64,000 nucleotides of DNA from [Synechococcus] sp. NIES-970 (GTDB lineage: Bacteria; Cyanobacteriota; Cyanobacteriia; Cyanobacteriales; MRBY01): assembly GCA_002356215.1 (NCBI GenBank), contig AP017959.1:2186195-2250194 (forward strand). Direction: 5' to 3'. Both the position numbers and the translations under genes were made by a program. Numbering within the stretch: position 1 is the stretch's first letter; every line of letters starts with the position of its first letter. Of the stretch, positions 46,709 through 52,677 are shown piece by piece. The notes under the pieces were generated by a model. That model did not search any database, was not told the origin of the DNA, and worked only from the letters and a program-made list of their open reading frames with translations.

Positions 46709-47557
46709 TTGAAACAATTTTGGCATCTCTGCAAAATTTCCCCAGCTCCCTTACGGCTGGGCCTTTTTTTCATCAGTCTGGCAGTTCTTTGGCTCCCCCT
46801 AGCGGCCCCGTTATACTTTATTTTCCGCGCCGATGAAAATCTGACCACTATCCTGACCATGGGGCTGCTTTTTGCCGAATTTCTGCTTTATCTTCCTTTT
46901 TGGGTCAAACGAGTCCACGGCGAGATGAAACCTTTGCGGCGGTTTGGCCTGGTTTGGCAGCCCCCGAATGCCGTTGATTTAATCATCGGCTTGGCCTATG
47001 GCTTGGGCTTCACCTGGGCACTGCTGATTTTTGAAGACCTCCTAGGGTTTATTGATCTCATCCCGCCGACCACCGCGCTCACCCGCATCGTCATCGAAGG
47101 AGCCCTCAGTGGCTTGGGGGTTGCCCTGGCGGAGGAGTTGGTTTTTCGGGGCTGGATTTATGATGAATTCGACCGGGACTATGGCCCGCAAGCCTCCCTC
47201 TGGGGGAGTGCGCTGCTCTTCGCTGCTCTCCATTTCCTGAAGCCTTTACCCGAGATGCTCCGGACTCTGCCAGTATTCCCTGGGTTGACGCTACTGGGTT
47301 TAACTTTGGTCTGGGCCAAGCGATCGCGCTCTGGACGTTTAGGCAAACCAATCGGCATCCATGGCGGGCTTGTGTGGGGCTACTACATTTTTAATGTGGG
47401 GGGATTAATTCAATACAAGGAAGGGGTATCCCCCTGGTTGACTGGCATTGATGGTAATCCCCTCGGTGGTCTATGGGGAATTTTGTTCCTCGTGGTTTTG
47501 GCTGGACTCATGGCCCGCGCCGCCCGGAAATCCCCCTCAAGAAAAAGACCCCTCTAA
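46709..47557 (+). CDS. CPBP (CAAX-type) intramembrane metalloprotease
   Basis: 282 residues from a TTG start, following the clpS stop by 54 nt. About eight membrane spans. The catalytic Glu pair is in AEELVFRGWIYDEF (EELVFR at 142-147, the EExxxR motif), the next motif has the metal His in FAALHFLKP (His175), and HGGLVWGYY forms the fourth motif. Such proteins cut membrane peptides or carry out other roles in cyanobacteria; the target is unknown. Position behind clpS suggests joint expression in protein quality control, an inference. Confidence 0.88.
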   Translation: MKQFWHLCKISPAPLRLGLFFISLAVLWLPLAAPLYFIFRADENLTTILTMGLLFAEFLLYLPFWVKRVHGEMKPLRRFGLVWQPPNAVDLIIGLAYGLGFTWALLIFEDLLGFIDLIPPTTALTRIVIEGALSGLGVALAEELVFRGWIYDEFDRDYGPQASLWGSALLFAALHFLKPLPEMLRTLPVFPGLTLLGLTLVWAKRSRSGRLGKPIGIHGGLVWGYYIFNVGGLIQYKEGVSPWLTGIDGNPLGGLWGILFLVVLAGLMARAARKSPSRKRPL

Positions 47558-47658: not shown

Positions 47659-48603
47659 CTACTGGGCTTTGTGGCCTTTCCCGAAGAATTTTGGCGGTTC
47701 TGCTAGGGTAAAGACTTCGGTATGGGTGGCGATCGCCTCACGAATGTGCCGGAAGGTTTGCAACATTCCCAATAGGGTTAAACCATCGATAATCTTAAAG
47801 CCACCAGTGGTTTGCTCAGCCAACAGTTGATCCACGGCTTCCGGGTCGGGCCGTAGATTCAGATCGCCATCGGTGCAGATCGCAAAACCCCAGGGGGAGC
47901 CATAGCTGGAAATGGGCGTCGAGTAGGAAGAAACGTTGGCGTAAACCGCCTTAAGGGTATTCACCAGTCGCGCATGGAGCCGTAAATTCGCCGGTGCGGT
48001 GGGGCCTGCCTGAACAGCAACAATGCCACCGGGAGCGAGCACATCCTTAAGTTGCTGGAAATACTCCTTAGTAAAGAGTTTAAAGGAAGGGCCTTCCTCA
48101 ATGGGATCCGACAGGTCAGAAATGATTACATCCCACTTTTCGGTAGTGGTTTCTAAAATTTTGAAGGCGTCTTCAATGCGTAGGTCTAAACGCGGATCAT
48201 CAAAGACCCCCTGGTGCATCTCCGGGAGATACTCTTTGCAGGCTTCAACAACTTCGCCGTCGATATCCACCATCATCACTTTTTCAACGGACTGCCAGCG
48301 CAATACTTCTCGCACGGTGGCCCCTTCTCCAGCACCAAGAATTAAGACCTTTTTCGGGGCGCCGTGGGCGATCATGGCCGGGTGAACGAGGGGTTCATGG
48401 TAGAGAAATTCGTCTCCGGTACAGGATTGCCATTTGCCATCAAGCACTAGGGCTTTGCCATAGGCACCACTTTCGACGATCGCCATTTCTTGAAATTGGG
48501 TTTGTTTATAGGCCAAAATCTTGGTGATCCCGTGGCTGTAGATATCCCAGGGTGTAATGTACTCATTAATCCAATAGTCGGCTTTAACTTCACTACCTGC
48601 CAT
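47659..48603 (-). CDS. Polyamine aminopropyltransferase, ACL5 (thermospermine synthase)-like
   Basis: 314 residues. Spermidine-synthase fold with the decarboxylated-SAM site ILGAGEGATVREVLRW (about 90-105), VDIDGEVVEACKEYLPE and catalytic Asp in DLSDPIEEGPSFKLFT near 170-185. In SpeE the last motif reads D(C/A)TDPIGP; the present DLSDPIEEGP with FKLFTKEYF, and the downstream YSTPISSYGSPWG block, are closer to plant ACL5-type thermospermine synthases than to SpeE. It therefore probably transfers aminopropyl to make spermidine, thermospermine or norspermine; the exact product cannot be decided by eye. It lies behind pstB, 57 nt apart. Confidence 0.85.
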   Translation of the reverse strand: MAGSEVKADYWINEYITPWDIYSHGITKILAYKQTQFQEMAIVESGAYGKALVLDGKWQSCTGDEFLYHEPLVHPAMIAHGAPKKVLILGAGEGATVREVLRWQSVEKVMMVDIDGEVVEACKEYLPEMHQGVFDDPRLDLRIEDAFKILETTTEKWDVIISDLSDPIEEGPSFKLFTKEYFQQLKDVLAPGGIVAVQAGPTAPANLRLHARLVNTLKAVYANVSSYSTPISSYGSPWGFAICTDGDLNLRPDPEAVDQLLAEQTTGGFKIIDGLTLLGMLQTFRHIREAIATHTEVFTLAEPPKFFGKGHKAQ

Positions 48604-48659
48604 AATTTTTTTCCTGTGACAATTGACCGGATACCAGTATTGCAGACTTTTTCGATTTT

Positions 48660-49457
48660 TTAGCCAAATTGACCGCTGACATAGCTGAGGGTCAGTTCAT
48701 CGTTGGGCGTCGTAAAGATCGTTTGGGTTTCGTCCATTTCTACGAGATAACCGACGCGGCGACCACCGCTCAGGGCTTCGGCGTTAAAAAAGGCCGTGTA
48801 GTCGGATACGCGAGAAGCCTGTTGCATGTTGTGGGTGACGATCACAATGGTGTAATTCTGCTTGAGATCCATCATCAACTCCTCAATCTTGAGGGTGGCG
48901 ATCGGATCTAGGGCGGAACAGGGTTCGTCCATCAAAATGACATCGGGCTTGAGGGCGATCGCCCGGGCGATACAGAGGCGCTGCTGTTGCCCTCCTGACA
49001 GAGACATCCCACTTTTATTAAGCTTATCTTTTACTTCATCCCAGAGCGCTGCTTGACGCAGGGCAGTTTCGACCACTTCATCGAGGTCAGCCTTCGGGTA
49101 ATTTGTCCGCACCGCAAAGGCAATATTGTCATAGATTGTCTTCGGGAAAGGGTTGGGCTGCTGAAACACCATGCCGATTTTTCGCCGCACCGCCACTGGT
49201 TCAATTGTTGCACCATGGAGATCAACCCCCCGATAATGTAATTTCCCCGTTACCTTAGCACCGCGAATGAGATCATTGGTGCGGTTGAAACAACGGAGTA
49301 GGGTACTTTTGCCACAACCCGAAGGCCCGATAAAGGCAGTGATTTTATTGGCCGGGACATCAAGGGTGACATCCCGCAACGCGACGGTGTTGTTGTAATA
49401 AACCGAGAGATTATTGACTTCAAAAACAGGTTGAGTCTTTACGAGGGTGTCAATCAT
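48660..49457 (-). CDS. pstB: Phosphate ABC transporter ATPase PstB
   Basis: 265 residues from the ATG at 49455-49457 ([14 protein letters not shown]; a longer in-frame reading adds 15 residues and looks unneeded). Walker [10 protein letters not shown] near 45, Q-loop [12 protein letters not shown], signature [11 protein letters not shown] near 158, Walker [14 protein letters not shown] near 178. Provides the energy for PstSAC high-affinity phosphate import. Last gene of pstSCAB; phoU is not present. 107 nt separate it from pstA, containing one HIP1 site. Confidence 0.96.
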
Positions 49458-49563
49458 GATGGTGAGTGTTGTAGTAACGGGGCTAGAAGGGATAAGTTCC
49501 AAGGAAGATTTTTAGTGTTTCTGTCGCTTGGCGATCGCCACCAAATATTTAGCCAAGGAAAAA

Positions 49564-50466
49564 CTAAACAACTTTTTGCCGACTAAAGAAACGCGCCGCA
49601 ATACTAAAAATCAACACAATAAAGACCAACATCATCGCCGCTGCCCAAGCCAAATCCTGGGAAGCCTTGTAGGGAATGATCGAGAAAAAATAAATTAAAA
49701 CCGGTAAGGTTGCTACGGGCTGAAACAGATCATTAGACCAGAAATTATTATTAAAAGCCGTAAACAATAGCGGCGCTGCCTCTCCTGCTGCGCGCCCCAA
49801 AGCCAAAACAATCCCCGTGGTTAAAGCAGGCATTGCCGTAGGGATGACAATTTGTGTAATCGTCTGAAAGCGAGTCGCCCCAATCCCAATTGAAGCCTGG
49901 CGCATTTCACTGGGCACGAGCAATAAAGCTTCCTCAGCAGCCCGGACGATGATGGGTAACATCAACACCCCAGTCGCAACTCCCCCCGAAAACGCAGAGA
50001 AGCTCCGCATCGGCAACACAACAATGGAGTAGGCAAATAGGCCACAGAGAATCGCGGGCACCCCGGTGAGGACGTTACAGGAAAATTTCACAATTTGGGC
50101 GATCTTCGTCCCTTTCCCAAATTCTGCTAGGTAAATCGCTGCCAGCACCCCAAAAGGCACGGCAATCACCGTCGCCACACTCAGGGTCATCAAGGTGCCA
50201 ATGATCGCATGACCAAATCCCCCTTCAGTGAGCCCTGGCGGTGGTGGGAGCTCTGTGAAAACGGTCGGAAATTTGAGTTGGTTGATCCCCTTTTTTGAGA
50301 CGCTGTAAACCACTGCGGCTAAAGGAATCAATACCGAGGCGGTAAAGGCAATCACCAAACCAGTCAGAAGGACGGACAGAGCCCGACGGTAGAGGGGAAT
50401 TGCACTCTTTGAGAGGTCTGACTCTTGGAGAAATACCGGAGCTGAATGGTTATCGAAAGTATCCAT
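49564..50466 (-). CDS. pstA: Phosphate ABC transporter permease PstA
   Basis: 300 residues, six membrane spans with the characteristic N-terminal span LSVLLTGLVIAFTASVLIPLAAVV, and the ABC EAA loop near 205-225 (RQASIGIGATRFQTITQIVIPTA). Pairs with PstC to form the channel for phosphate. The family PstA element RAAGEAAPLLFTAFNNN is present. Gene order pstS-pstC-pstA-pstB on the minus strand, with small gaps (24 nt to pstC). Confidence 0.95.
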   Translation of the reverse strand: MDTFDNHSAPVFLQESDLSKSAIPLYRRALSVLLTGLVIAFTASVLIPLAAVVYSVSKKGINQLKFPTVFTELPPPPGLTEGGFGHAIIGTLMTLSVATVIAVPFGVLAAIYLAEFGKGTKIAQIVKFSCNVLTGVPAILCGLFAYSIVVLPMRSFSAFSGGVATGVLMLPIIVRAAEEALLLVPSEMRQASIGIGATRFQTITQIVIPTAMPALTTGIVLALGRAAGEAAPLLFTAFNNNFWSNDLFQPVATLPVLIYFFSIIPYKASQDLAWAAAMMLVFIVLIFSIAARFFSRQKVV

Positions 50467-50490
50467 GATGGTAATTAGAAGTAAATCAAC

Positions 50491-51462
50491 CTAGCGTTCA
50501 ACGTTTTGGAAACGACGAATAATCAGTTCTGCAAAGATGTTCACCACCAAAGAAAGAACCATCAGCACGAGCCCAGCGTACATCAGTGCCGAGACCTGGA
50601 GACGGCCTGCTTCTCCGAACTGGGAGGCGATCAATGCTGTAATCGTTGATCCTGGCTGCAAAATCGAGATATCAATCCGGTTGGCGTTACCCACTAGCAT
50701 TGCGGCCACCATGGTTTCGCCCATGGCCCGACCAAGGGCAAGCATCACAGAACTAACAATCCCCGATAGACCAGCGGGAATCAATACCCTCAGAATAGTT
50801 TCCCAACGGGTCATTCCCAAGGCTAGGGCGCCATTGCGGAGATAGGGAGGAAGCACTTCAAAGGTACTGCGGGTAATGGAAATGATGATCGGCACAATCA
50901 TCACTGCGAGCACCAGACCCACGATCATCAGGTTGTTTCCCCTCGGGGAACTGCCCCCAAAAAAGGGAATCCAGCCAAGATATTGATTTAAAAACTGGAA
51001 GAAGGGACGGAGGAAAGGTACAAGGACAAAAATCCCCCAAATCCCTAAGACCACACTGGGAATCGCCACAATCAGCTCAATGGCAAAGGCAATGGGGGTG
51101 GTGATGTAGCGGGGCACAAAATCTTCAGTCAGGAAGATAGCCACCCCAACTCCGACGGGAACAGCAATGATGAGGGCGATCGCCGAAGTGATCAAAGTGC
51201 CATAAATCTGGGGGAGGACACCATAGACGTCTTCAATGGGGTTCCAAGTGCTATTAAACAAAAAACCAAGGCCAAACAATTGTATTGCTTGGGTACTGGA
51301 TGCTCCGGTTTGAAGAATTACCCAGAACAATACCGAACCTGCGGCAATGGCCAAAGTGAGAGTTAGGCCCCAAAACCCGATGTCGATTACCCGGGCTGGG
51401 GTCGTTTTTTTGTCTAGACTTGGACTGCGCTGAAATCCAGAAGTCTCTTTAGCGATCGCCAT
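50491..51462 (-). CDS. pstC: Phosphate ABC transporter permease PstC
   Basis: 323 residues, six to seven membrane spans, with the EAA-type loop ALGMTRWETILRVLIPAGLSGI near 220 and GRAMGETMVAAMLVGNANR close to the C-terminus, both typical of PstC. It heterodimerises with PstA. Upstream of it lies a 102-nt gap after pstS that contains a GC-rich hairpin, suggesting different levels for pstS and the rest of the operon. Confidence 0.95.
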   Translation of the reverse strand: MAIAKETSGFQRSPSLDKKTTPARVIDIGFWGLTLTLAIAAGSVLFWVILQTGASSTQAIQLFGLGFLFNSTWNPIEDVYGVLPQIYGTLITSAIALIIAVPVGVGVAIFLTEDFVPRYITTPIAFAIELIVAIPSVVLGIWGIFVLVPFLRPFFQFLNQYLGWIPFFGGSSPRGNNLMIVGLVLAVMIVPIIISITRSTFEVLPPYLRNGALALGMTRWETILRVLIPAGLSGIVSSVMLALGRAMGETMVAAMLVGNANRIDISILQPGSTITALIASQFGEAGRLQVSALMYAGLVLMVLSLVVNIFAELIIRRFQNVER

Positions 51463-51514
51463 AACTTTTTAAAAAATCAAGTATTGCATCAGTTTAGGTC
51501 TATAGATCCACGTA

Positions 51515-51543
51515 GAGGGCGATTAGGTCAAGCCGTCGCCCTC
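51515..51543 (-). other. Hairpin in the pstS-pstC intergenic space
   Basis: GAGGGCGA at 51515-51522 pairs perfectly with TCGCCCTC at 51536-51543 around a 13-nt loop, 22 nt past the pstS stop. On the minus strand there is no T run after it, so it is not a classical terminator; such hairpins often guard the 3' end of the first cistron's mRNA and give more binding protein than permease. Partial attenuation is the alternative. Confidence 0.6.
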
Positions 51544-51564
51544 CGTATCACTATGTTTCTGCGG

Positions 51565-52677
51565 TTAGCTAGGGTTAGTCGTTACACTATCCAAAGCTTC
51601 TTGGATTCGTTCAACCAAAGAATCAGGCATAGGAACATAATATAGTTCTTCGGTGATTGCTCGACCATCAGGCCCTAGAGTCCACTCGATAGTACTCTTG
51701 AGCGCTTCCCACTTCGCTGCATCAGGATAGTTGCGATAAACCATGGCCCATGTCAAACCAACAATTGGGTAAGCATCAGGGTTCTGAGGATCGGGAACGA
51801 GGAGCTCGAAATCTTCAGGAATTTCTTCCCCTTCAAAGGCGAGAGCAGCATTGGCTGGGAGGGGATCCGGATAGTTTCCGGCCGCGTTTTCGATGCGCGC
51901 TACAGGAATATCATTTAATTCAGCGAAGGCATAAGAAATATAACCGATCGCCCCTTCATTTTGCTGAATCCCAGCAGCAACCCCTTCATTCCCTTGACCA
52001 CCGATCCCGACGGGCCATTCTACAGTTGTACCAGTGCCAGCCGTCCATTGGTCACAAACAGTCTGAATATGGTTCGTAAAGACAAATGTCGTGCCGGAAC
52101 CATCGGAGCGGTGAACCCAAGTGATGGGTAGGTCGGGCAGCTCTACACCATCATTATCAGCGGCGATCGCTGCATCGTTCCAGTTGGTGATGTCACCATT
52201 GACGATACCGCAATAGGTTTCCCGAGAAAATCTCAGCTCCGCATCTACACCGGGGAGGTTGTAGGCAAAAATTACATAGCCCCCAACCACAGGTATTTGA
52301 AGGGGCTCTGTGCCAGGATAAGCCGCTCTAAAAGAAGCCATCCGGTCTTCAGATTCAGTGATGGGCGCTTCACTGGCCCCAAAGTCAACTGTACCGTTGA
52401 TGTACTGCTCTAGACCTGCACCACTACCAACAGACTGATAGCTAACCTGCACATTGGAATCAACCTCACGATTGTATGTGTCGAACCAACGCTGAAACAG
52501 AGGGGCGGGAAAACTCGCACCAGCACCACTGATAGAGATTGTGCTCCCACTACCAGAAGTTACAGGAGCGTCATCATCACCAACGGTTCCTGTTCCACCA
52601 CAAGCCGAAATACTCAGGGAGAGAAGTGCTGCAGTTGCAAGGGTTTTACGACGGGAGAAAAATTTCAACGGTACCAT
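51565..52677 (-). CDS. pstS: Phosphate-binding lipoprotein PstS
   Basis: 370 residues. Lipoprotein signal with lipobox ISAC (Cys about 26) after RRKTLATAALLSLS. Phosphate-binding residues are seen in ISGAGASFPAPLFQRW (about 49-64), SVGSGAGLEQYINGTVDFGASEAPIT, and HRSDGSGTTFVFTNHI near 190. It catches phosphate in the periplasm for PstCAB. Length and motifs fit cyanobacterial PstS. First gene of the operon, with an 11-bp-spaced repeat (PHO box) about 80-113 nt upstream of its ATG, so induction by phosphate starvation via SphS-SphR is inferred. Confidence 0.96.
   Translation of the reverse strand: MVPLKFFSRRKTLATAALLSLSISACGGTGTVGDDDAPVTSGSGSTISISGAGASFPAPLFQRWFDTYNREVDSNVQVSYQSVGSGAGLEQYINGTVDFGASEAPITESEDRMASFRAAYPGTEPLQIPVVGGYVIFAYNLPGVDAELRFSRETYCGIVNGDITNWNDAAIAADNDGVELPDLPITWVHRSDGSGTTFVFTNHIQTVCDQWTAGTGTTVEWPVGIGGQGNEGVAAGIQQNEGAIGYISYAFAELNDIPVARIENAAGNYPDPLPANAALAFEGEEIPEDFELLVPDPQNPDAYPIVGLTWAMVYRNYPDAAKWEALKSTIEWTLGPDGRAITEELYYVPMPDSLVERIQEALDSVTTNPS

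What the first reader, a model, noticed from the sequence alone, without database searches (positions are those of the whole stretch)
47659..48603. ACL5-type aminopropyltransferase in a cyanobacterium
The active-site block DLSDPIEEGP and the downstream YSTPISSYGSPWG look like plant thermospermine synthase rather than SpeE. It could mark the source of the plant gene or an unusual polyamine such as thermospermine or norspermine in this strain. Gene order puts it behind pstB.
Basis: partly seen in the sequence, partly recalled or inferred. Interest (0 to 1): 0.52.

Follow-up and report, generated by a model that had tools for sequence, protein, structure and literature searches.

The report
Ordinary cyanobacterial spermidine synthase, ACL5-related
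The gene makes a polyamine-building enzyme that does resemble the plant thermospermine enzyme more than the E. coli one, but it belongs to a widespread, already described cyanobacterial family whose tested single-copy member makes ordinary spermidine, and it is not shown to be the source of the plant gene.

Summary
The ORF is real (47659-48603, minus strand, 314 aa): an aminopropyltransferase, the only PF01564 match in its genome. The two further readings do not hold. (1) Source of the plant gene: Medicago's enzyme does not fall inside the cyanobacterial clade; Dehalococcoidia score higher (268 bits against 235 for the best cyanobacterium), as published in 2025; AU tests cannot decide. (2) Unusual polyamine: the query carries all four residues named for plant thermospermine synthase, but so do all 75 rows of its cyanobacterial type; its probable Microcystis ortholog makes spermidine and N1-aminopropylagmatine, no thermospermine, in print. 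The genome holds arginine decarboxylase, an agmatinase-family enzyme and AdoMet decarboxylase. Best reading: the strain's spermidine / N1-aminopropylagmatine synthase. The pstB neighbourhood is not conserved even within the genus. Open point: Synechococcus PCC 7002, probably a close relative, is reported to hold a little 'spermine'; thermospermine made by this one enzyme is not excluded.

The parts
47659..48603 (-). aminopropyltransferase, 314 aa (speE-type gene of the ACL5/Thermus-like branch)
48604..48663 (-). upstream stretch of about 60 bp, alignable with congeners L003 and L004; homology stops at the pstB stop codon
48660..49502 (-). pstB, upstream neighbour, not part of a conserved unit with the aminopropyltransferase
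46709..47557 (+). CAAX-type (Rce1-like) protease gene, convergent neighbour, conserved in two congeners

Best explanation
It is the strain's only aminopropyltransferase and works as a spermidine synthase that can also use agmatine: it moves an aminopropyl group from decarboxylated AdoMet to putrescine, giving spermidine, or to agmatine, giving N1-aminopropylagmatine, which the genome's agmatinase-family enzyme would open to spermidine. It belongs to the cyanobacterial type of the ACL5/Thermus-like half of the family, apparently mostly inherited vertically in Cyanobacteriales. Shown here: gene, family, clade, single copy, presence of arginine decarboxylase, agmatinase-family enzyme and AdoMet decarboxylase. 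Inferred: the product, from the published activity of the Microcystis singleton and the spermidine content of PCC 7002.
For: Only PF01564 match in the genome. SpeD of the B. subtilis type, biosynthetic arginine decarboxylase and agmatinase TIGR01230, all above cut-off; no agmatine deiminase PF04371 and no NspC TIGR01047 match. The query sits inside a cyanobacterial clade (99/93; 100/100). PMC11107197 (passages; section 8): the Microcystis singleton has spermidine and N1-aminopropylagmatine synthase activity, no Spm/Tspm; of the two Arthrospira enzymes one makes thermospermine, one only spermidine. Genus g118, which by size and copy number I take for Arthrospira/Limnospira, has one copy of the query's type (65-66%) and one diverged copy (56-57%). 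Trp58 is present in all 75 rows of the query's type, Leu in the 3 Arthrospira-like diverged copies and in Medicago, Ile/Thr/Leu in 15 Dehalococcoidia. PMC6950573 (passages): PCC 7002 has speE A2283, speB, speH; spermidine is its major polyamine.
Against: All four residues that mark plant thermospermine synthase (His85, Glu109, Asp129, Trp255 of Medicago) are present in the query. The paper on PCC 7002 also reports a minor 'spermine' pool. No enzyme from this genus has been assayed in anything I read. That the Microcystis and Arthrospira enzymes of the paper correspond to my unnamed loci is inferred, not checked by accession.
Confidence: 0.8

Rival explanations
1. Bifunctional enzyme: mainly spermidine, with real physiological thermospermine production as a second step.
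For: Four of four plant thermospermine residues are present; PCC 7002 is reported to contain a little 'spermine' that rises with salt (PMC6950573); a relative in Arthrospira makes both (PMC11107197).
Against: The Microcystis singleton, probably the nearest tested ortholog, showed no Spm/Tspm; Trp58 as in all 75 rows of the type rather than the Leu of Medicago and the diverged Arthrospira-like copies.
Confidence: 0.14
2. Dedicated thermospermine/norspermine synthase of the ACL5 kind.
For: Best PDB sequence match is Medicago thermospermine synthase, 221.9 bits; structural matches 1uir and 6bq6 lead.
Against: It is the only aminopropyltransferase of the genome, no NspC match, and spermidine is the main polyamine of PCC 7002.
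Confidence: 0.04
3. Living relative of the cyanobacterial donor of the plant ACL5 gene (endosymbiotic transfer).
For: Same half of the family tree; holding Medicago together with the cyanobacteria costs only 0.29 log units, p-AU 0.415; the abstract of PMC12803844 favours endosymbiotic transfer although its closest homologs are Chloroflexota.
Against: Dehalococcoidia score higher against Medicago (up to 268 bits) than the best cyanobacterium held (235), the query (219) or the Gloeomargarita-like L050 (199); Medicago with Dehalococcoidia is equally allowed, p-AU 0.408.
Confidence: 0.15

Closest known systems
Cyanobacterial spermidine / N1-aminopropylagmatine synthase (Microcystis aeruginosa WP_002790803, PMC11107197)
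   Same: single-copy cyanobacterial aminopropyltransferase related to the Arthrospira pair; inferred to be of the query's type (genus g21, which I take for Microcystis, is about 70% identical)
   Different: not assayed in this strain; correspondence to my unnamed loci is inferred
Arthrospira thermospermine synthase APT01 (BAI92260, PMC11107197)
   Same: same cyanobacterial clade; same His/Glu/Asp/Trp residues
   Different: the probable counterpart L084 is a diverged second copy, 55-57% identical, with Leu instead of Trp58 and Phe instead of Tyr234
Plant thermospermine synthase ACL5 (Medicago 6bq2)
   Same: 40% identical, same half of the tree, same fold and same four marker residues
   Different: not inside the cyanobacterial clade; Leu in place of Trp58; Dehalococcoidia are closer to the plant protein
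SpeE of E. coli and plant/animal spermidine synthase
   Same: same superfamily and catalytic Asp residues
   Different: 30-36% identical, across a 99-100% branch; Asp and Glu instead of Glu and Asp at the two dcAdoMet positions in E. coli and Arabidopsis
Synechococcus spermidine synthase 6qmm
   Same: cyanobacterial by its PDB title, same fold
   Different: 30-31% identical; ranked behind the Thermus, Medicago and Pyrobaculum enzymes

Membership tests
Aminopropyltransferase (spermine/spermidine synthase) superfamily | PF01564 catalytic domain and PF17284 N-terminal domain over the curated cut-offs | tested here: met
   159.7 vs 22.9 bits and 34.1 vs 22.1 bits
Aminopropyltransferase (spermine/spermidine synthase) superfamily | catalytic Asp pair (Medicago Asp178, Asp181) and the conserved Gln75 | tested here: met
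   query D163, D166, Q59; the role of Gln75 and Asp181 is recalled
SpeE equivalog (TIGR00417 / NF002010) | score over NCBIfam's curated cut-off | tested here: not met
   219.3 vs 249.55 and 250.5 vs 260 bits
SpeE / SPDS clade | groups with E. coli, B. subtilis, Arabidopsis, C. elegans spermidine synthases | tested here: not met
   99/99 branch, 100/99; but an AU test does not reject the cyanobacteria as direct neighbours of that clade (p 0.329)
Plant thermospermine synthase (ACL5) | His85, Glu109, Asp129, Trp255 (Medicago numbering) | tested here: met
   H69, E93, D113, W238; not diagnostic: all 75 rows of the type share them, and B. subtilis SpeE has the Trp
Plant thermospermine synthase (ACL5) | one clade with the plant enzyme | tested here: inconclusive
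   Medicago with cyanobacteria p-AU 0.415, with Dehalococcoidia p-AU 0.408; one plant sequence only
Plant thermospermine synthase (ACL5) | makes thermospermine from spermidine | not testable with these tools
   needs an assay
Cyanobacterial spermidine / N1-aminopropylagmatine synthase | lies in the cyanobacterial clade as the slowly evolving, mostly single copy | tested here: met
   43 of 291 genomes of the phylum sample hold this kind at better than 1e-100, 3 of these with a second diverged copy
Cyanobacterial spermidine / N1-aminopropylagmatine synthase | genome with arginine decarboxylase, agmatinase-family enzyme and AdoMet decarboxylase | tested here: met
Cyanobacterial spermidine / N1-aminopropylagmatine synthase | activity on putrescine and agmatine, none on spermidine | not testable with these tools
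   inferred from PMC11107197

The most novel reading that the evidence does not exclude
The small 'spermine' pool reported in PCC 7002 is really thermospermine, made by this single enzyme as a second step, so that a mesophilic cyanobacterium with only one aminopropyltransferase makes the plant-type tetraamine; and in other cyanobacteria the change of Trp58 to Leu in a duplicated copy is what turned a spermidine synthase into a full thermospermine synthase.
Probability: 0.12. Interest if true: 0.45.

Novelty: already known. Interest (0 to 1): 0.15.

Why it matters
It settles an annotation question: plant-looking motifs in cyanobacterial aminopropyltransferases do not by themselves mean thermospermine. 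The marker residues named for the plant enzyme are shared by the whole cyanobacterial type, so they cannot be used to predict the product. The repeated duplications in other cyanobacteria (three separate diverged lineages in the tree) are a natural series for asking which residues decide between spermidine and thermospermine; Trp58 is the candidate that this comparison yields.

Tried and rejected
Functional link to phosphate uptake because of pstB: rejected. In two congeners 98% identical in this protein (L003, L004; wider stretches L177, L178) no match to the window's pstB was found in the stretches fetched; their upstream neighbour is a divergent pst cluster only about 34% identical to the window's, and alignment with L003 and L004 stops at the pstB stop codon.

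Prediction of the product from the Medicago residues: rejected as non-diagnostic. The review PMC6356823 (section 9) assigns the His/Glu/Asp set to spermine synthase and Gln/Asp/Glu to thermospermine synthase; PMC11107197 and the Medicago sequence itself say the reverse, so I followed those.

Assigning Arthrospira APT01/APT02 to my loci by accession order: tried in thought and dropped, because the two genes lie almost symmetrically on the chromosome (G299), so a reversed record would fit as well. The assignment rests on divergence and Trp58 alone.

A quick tree was discarded: the tree held for the test scored 45 log units better than the free tree, so the free search had failed; one search replaced it with 42 rows and a careful search. 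In one search the row L054 (branch length 3.05) fell on the ACL5-like side; I treat that as a long-branch placement. One search left out L054 and the other cyanobacterial SpeE rows, REF_7xif, the diverged second copies, L049 and the planctomycete/acidobacterial rows. One search used 36 of the 80 loci; one search used 20 of the 80.

In the 75-row column counts one row is the window's own gene (L002) and one gene occurs twice (L068, L087), so they stand for 73 other genes, many closely related.

Full report
What is there. The minus-strand ORF 47659-48603 encodes 314 aa with the two spermidine-synthase domains over Pfam's cut-offs. It is the only PF01564 match in its 3.12 Mb genome, 99.99% complete. 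An AlphaFold2 model on a 21-row alignment has mean pLDDT 89.5 and pTM 0.90; Foldseek's first seven PDB chains are T. thermophilus aminopropyltransferase and Medicago thermospermine synthase, then Pyrobaculum, then a Synechococcus spermidine synthase (6qmm), P. horikoshii and E. coli SpeE.

ACL5-like or SpeE-like. By sequence the best of 26 matched PDB sequences is Medicago thermospermine synthase (221.9 bits), then T. thermophilus (214.7, 212.9), 7xif (167.7), E. coli SpeE (160.4); Arabidopsis spermidine synthase 1 has 131 to 132. The two best-matching SpeE-type NCBIfam equivalogs match below their curated cut-offs (219.3 of 249.55; 250.5 of 260). Identity over aligned columns is 40% to Medicago, 44% to T. 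thermophilus, 33% to E. coli, 30% to Arabidopsis SPDS2. In a careful tree of 86 rows the SpeE/SPDS rows split from the rest at 99/99, and the query lies in a cyanobacterial clade (99/93) that also holds five planctomycete and one acidobacterial MAG sequence. With 42 rows the same split is 100/99 and the cyanobacterial clade 100/100.

Source of the plant gene. Of the 80 best loci found with an alignment led by the Medicago sequence, the first four are Dehalococcoidia (44-46% identity). Medicago does not fall inside the cyanobacterial clade in either careful tree. AU tests reject neither Medicago with cyanobacteria (p 0.415) nor with Dehalococcoidia (p 0.408). PMC12803844 (abstract and passages; section 11) reports that the closest bacterial homologs of Archaeplastida thermospermine synthases are Chloroflexota and not cyanobacterial, while its abstract still prefers endosymbiotic transfer. 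My data add nothing decisive: one plant sequence was available.

Product. PMC11107197 (abstract, passages and section 8) expressed a Microcystis singleton (spermidine and N1-aminopropylagmatine, no Spm/Tspm) and two Arthrospira enzymes (one thermospermine, one spermidine only), and states that the motifs do not separate spermidine synthases from thermospermine synthases. My comparison agrees: the Medicago residues His85, Glu109, Asp129 (PMC11107197) and Trp255 (PMC6356823, section 9) are H69, E93, D113 and W238 in the query, and 75 of 75 rows of its type share each of them. What does vary is position 58: Trp in 75 of 75 rows of the type, in the 6 planctomycete/acidobacterial rows, in L049 and L050 and in 7 diverged copies from two other lineages; Leu in Medicago and in 3 of 3 diverged Arthrospira-like copies; Ile 9, Thr 5, Leu 1 in 15 Dehalococcoidia. 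Since the reference SpeE proteins have Val or Ile there, the position is at most informative within this clade. The query has Trp.

Pathway. The genome has a B. subtilis-type AdoMet decarboxylase (L093, 129.9 of 75.65 bits), biosynthetic arginine decarboxylase (L174, 753.1 of 624.1 bits for speA) and an agmatinase-family enzyme (L176, 291.1 of 174.3 bits), and no match to agmatine deiminase or carboxynorspermidine decarboxylase. I did not search for ornithine decarboxylases of other folds or for homospermidine synthase. The set fits arginine to agmatine to (putrescine or N1-aminopropylagmatine) to spermidine. [quoted passage not shown] methods CE/MS and GC/MS).

Spread and neighbourhood. In a phylum sample 222 of 291 genomes have some match at 1e-20; 43 of 291 hold the query's kind at better than 1e-100, 3 of them with a second, diverged copy of that kind. 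In the family of G123, 60 of 61 genomes match at 1e-60 and 15 carry two. The tree places the diverged copies in three separate lineages. The pstB neighbour is not conserved: see Tried and rejected.

Literature. Nine searches of the held library were made. ACL5-like aminopropyltransferases in cyanobacteria and the plant-origin question are both in print (PMC11107197, PMC12803844). Verdict: an ordinary member of a described family; the strain-level product remains to be assayed.

Noticed in passing
L135, L138, L150, L167, L169 (Planctomycetota MAGs), L171 (Acidobacteria MAG): These carry a protein 61-66% identical to the cyanobacterial one and branch inside the cyanobacterial clade at several places: likely transfers out of cyanobacteria, unless the MAG contigs are misbinned.
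   Followed up: partly
window 48660-52677; L177, L178: The pst cluster beside this gene has been swapped: two congeners carry at the same spot a divergent pst cluster about 34% identical in PstC, and no close copy of the window's pstC was found in the three congeners searched.
   Followed up: partly
L082, L084, L085; L086, L088, L089, L091; L038, L045, L048: Three separate lineages of diverged second copies. The last two keep Trp58, but the second has Leu for Trp238 and the third Asn for Tyr234 and Glu for Asp166, so their function may be something else.
   Followed up: partly
window protein residues 90-94: The usual GGGEG motif reads GAGEG in this genome and in the two nearest congeners (L003, L004) but not in L005.
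   Followed up: no
family f6; L164: Fourteen sampled genomes of family f6 are listed without any match at 1e-20 (further ones may be unlisted), yet Fischerella sp. PCC 9431 (L164) has the gene at 69% identity: patchy loss or gain.
   Followed up: no
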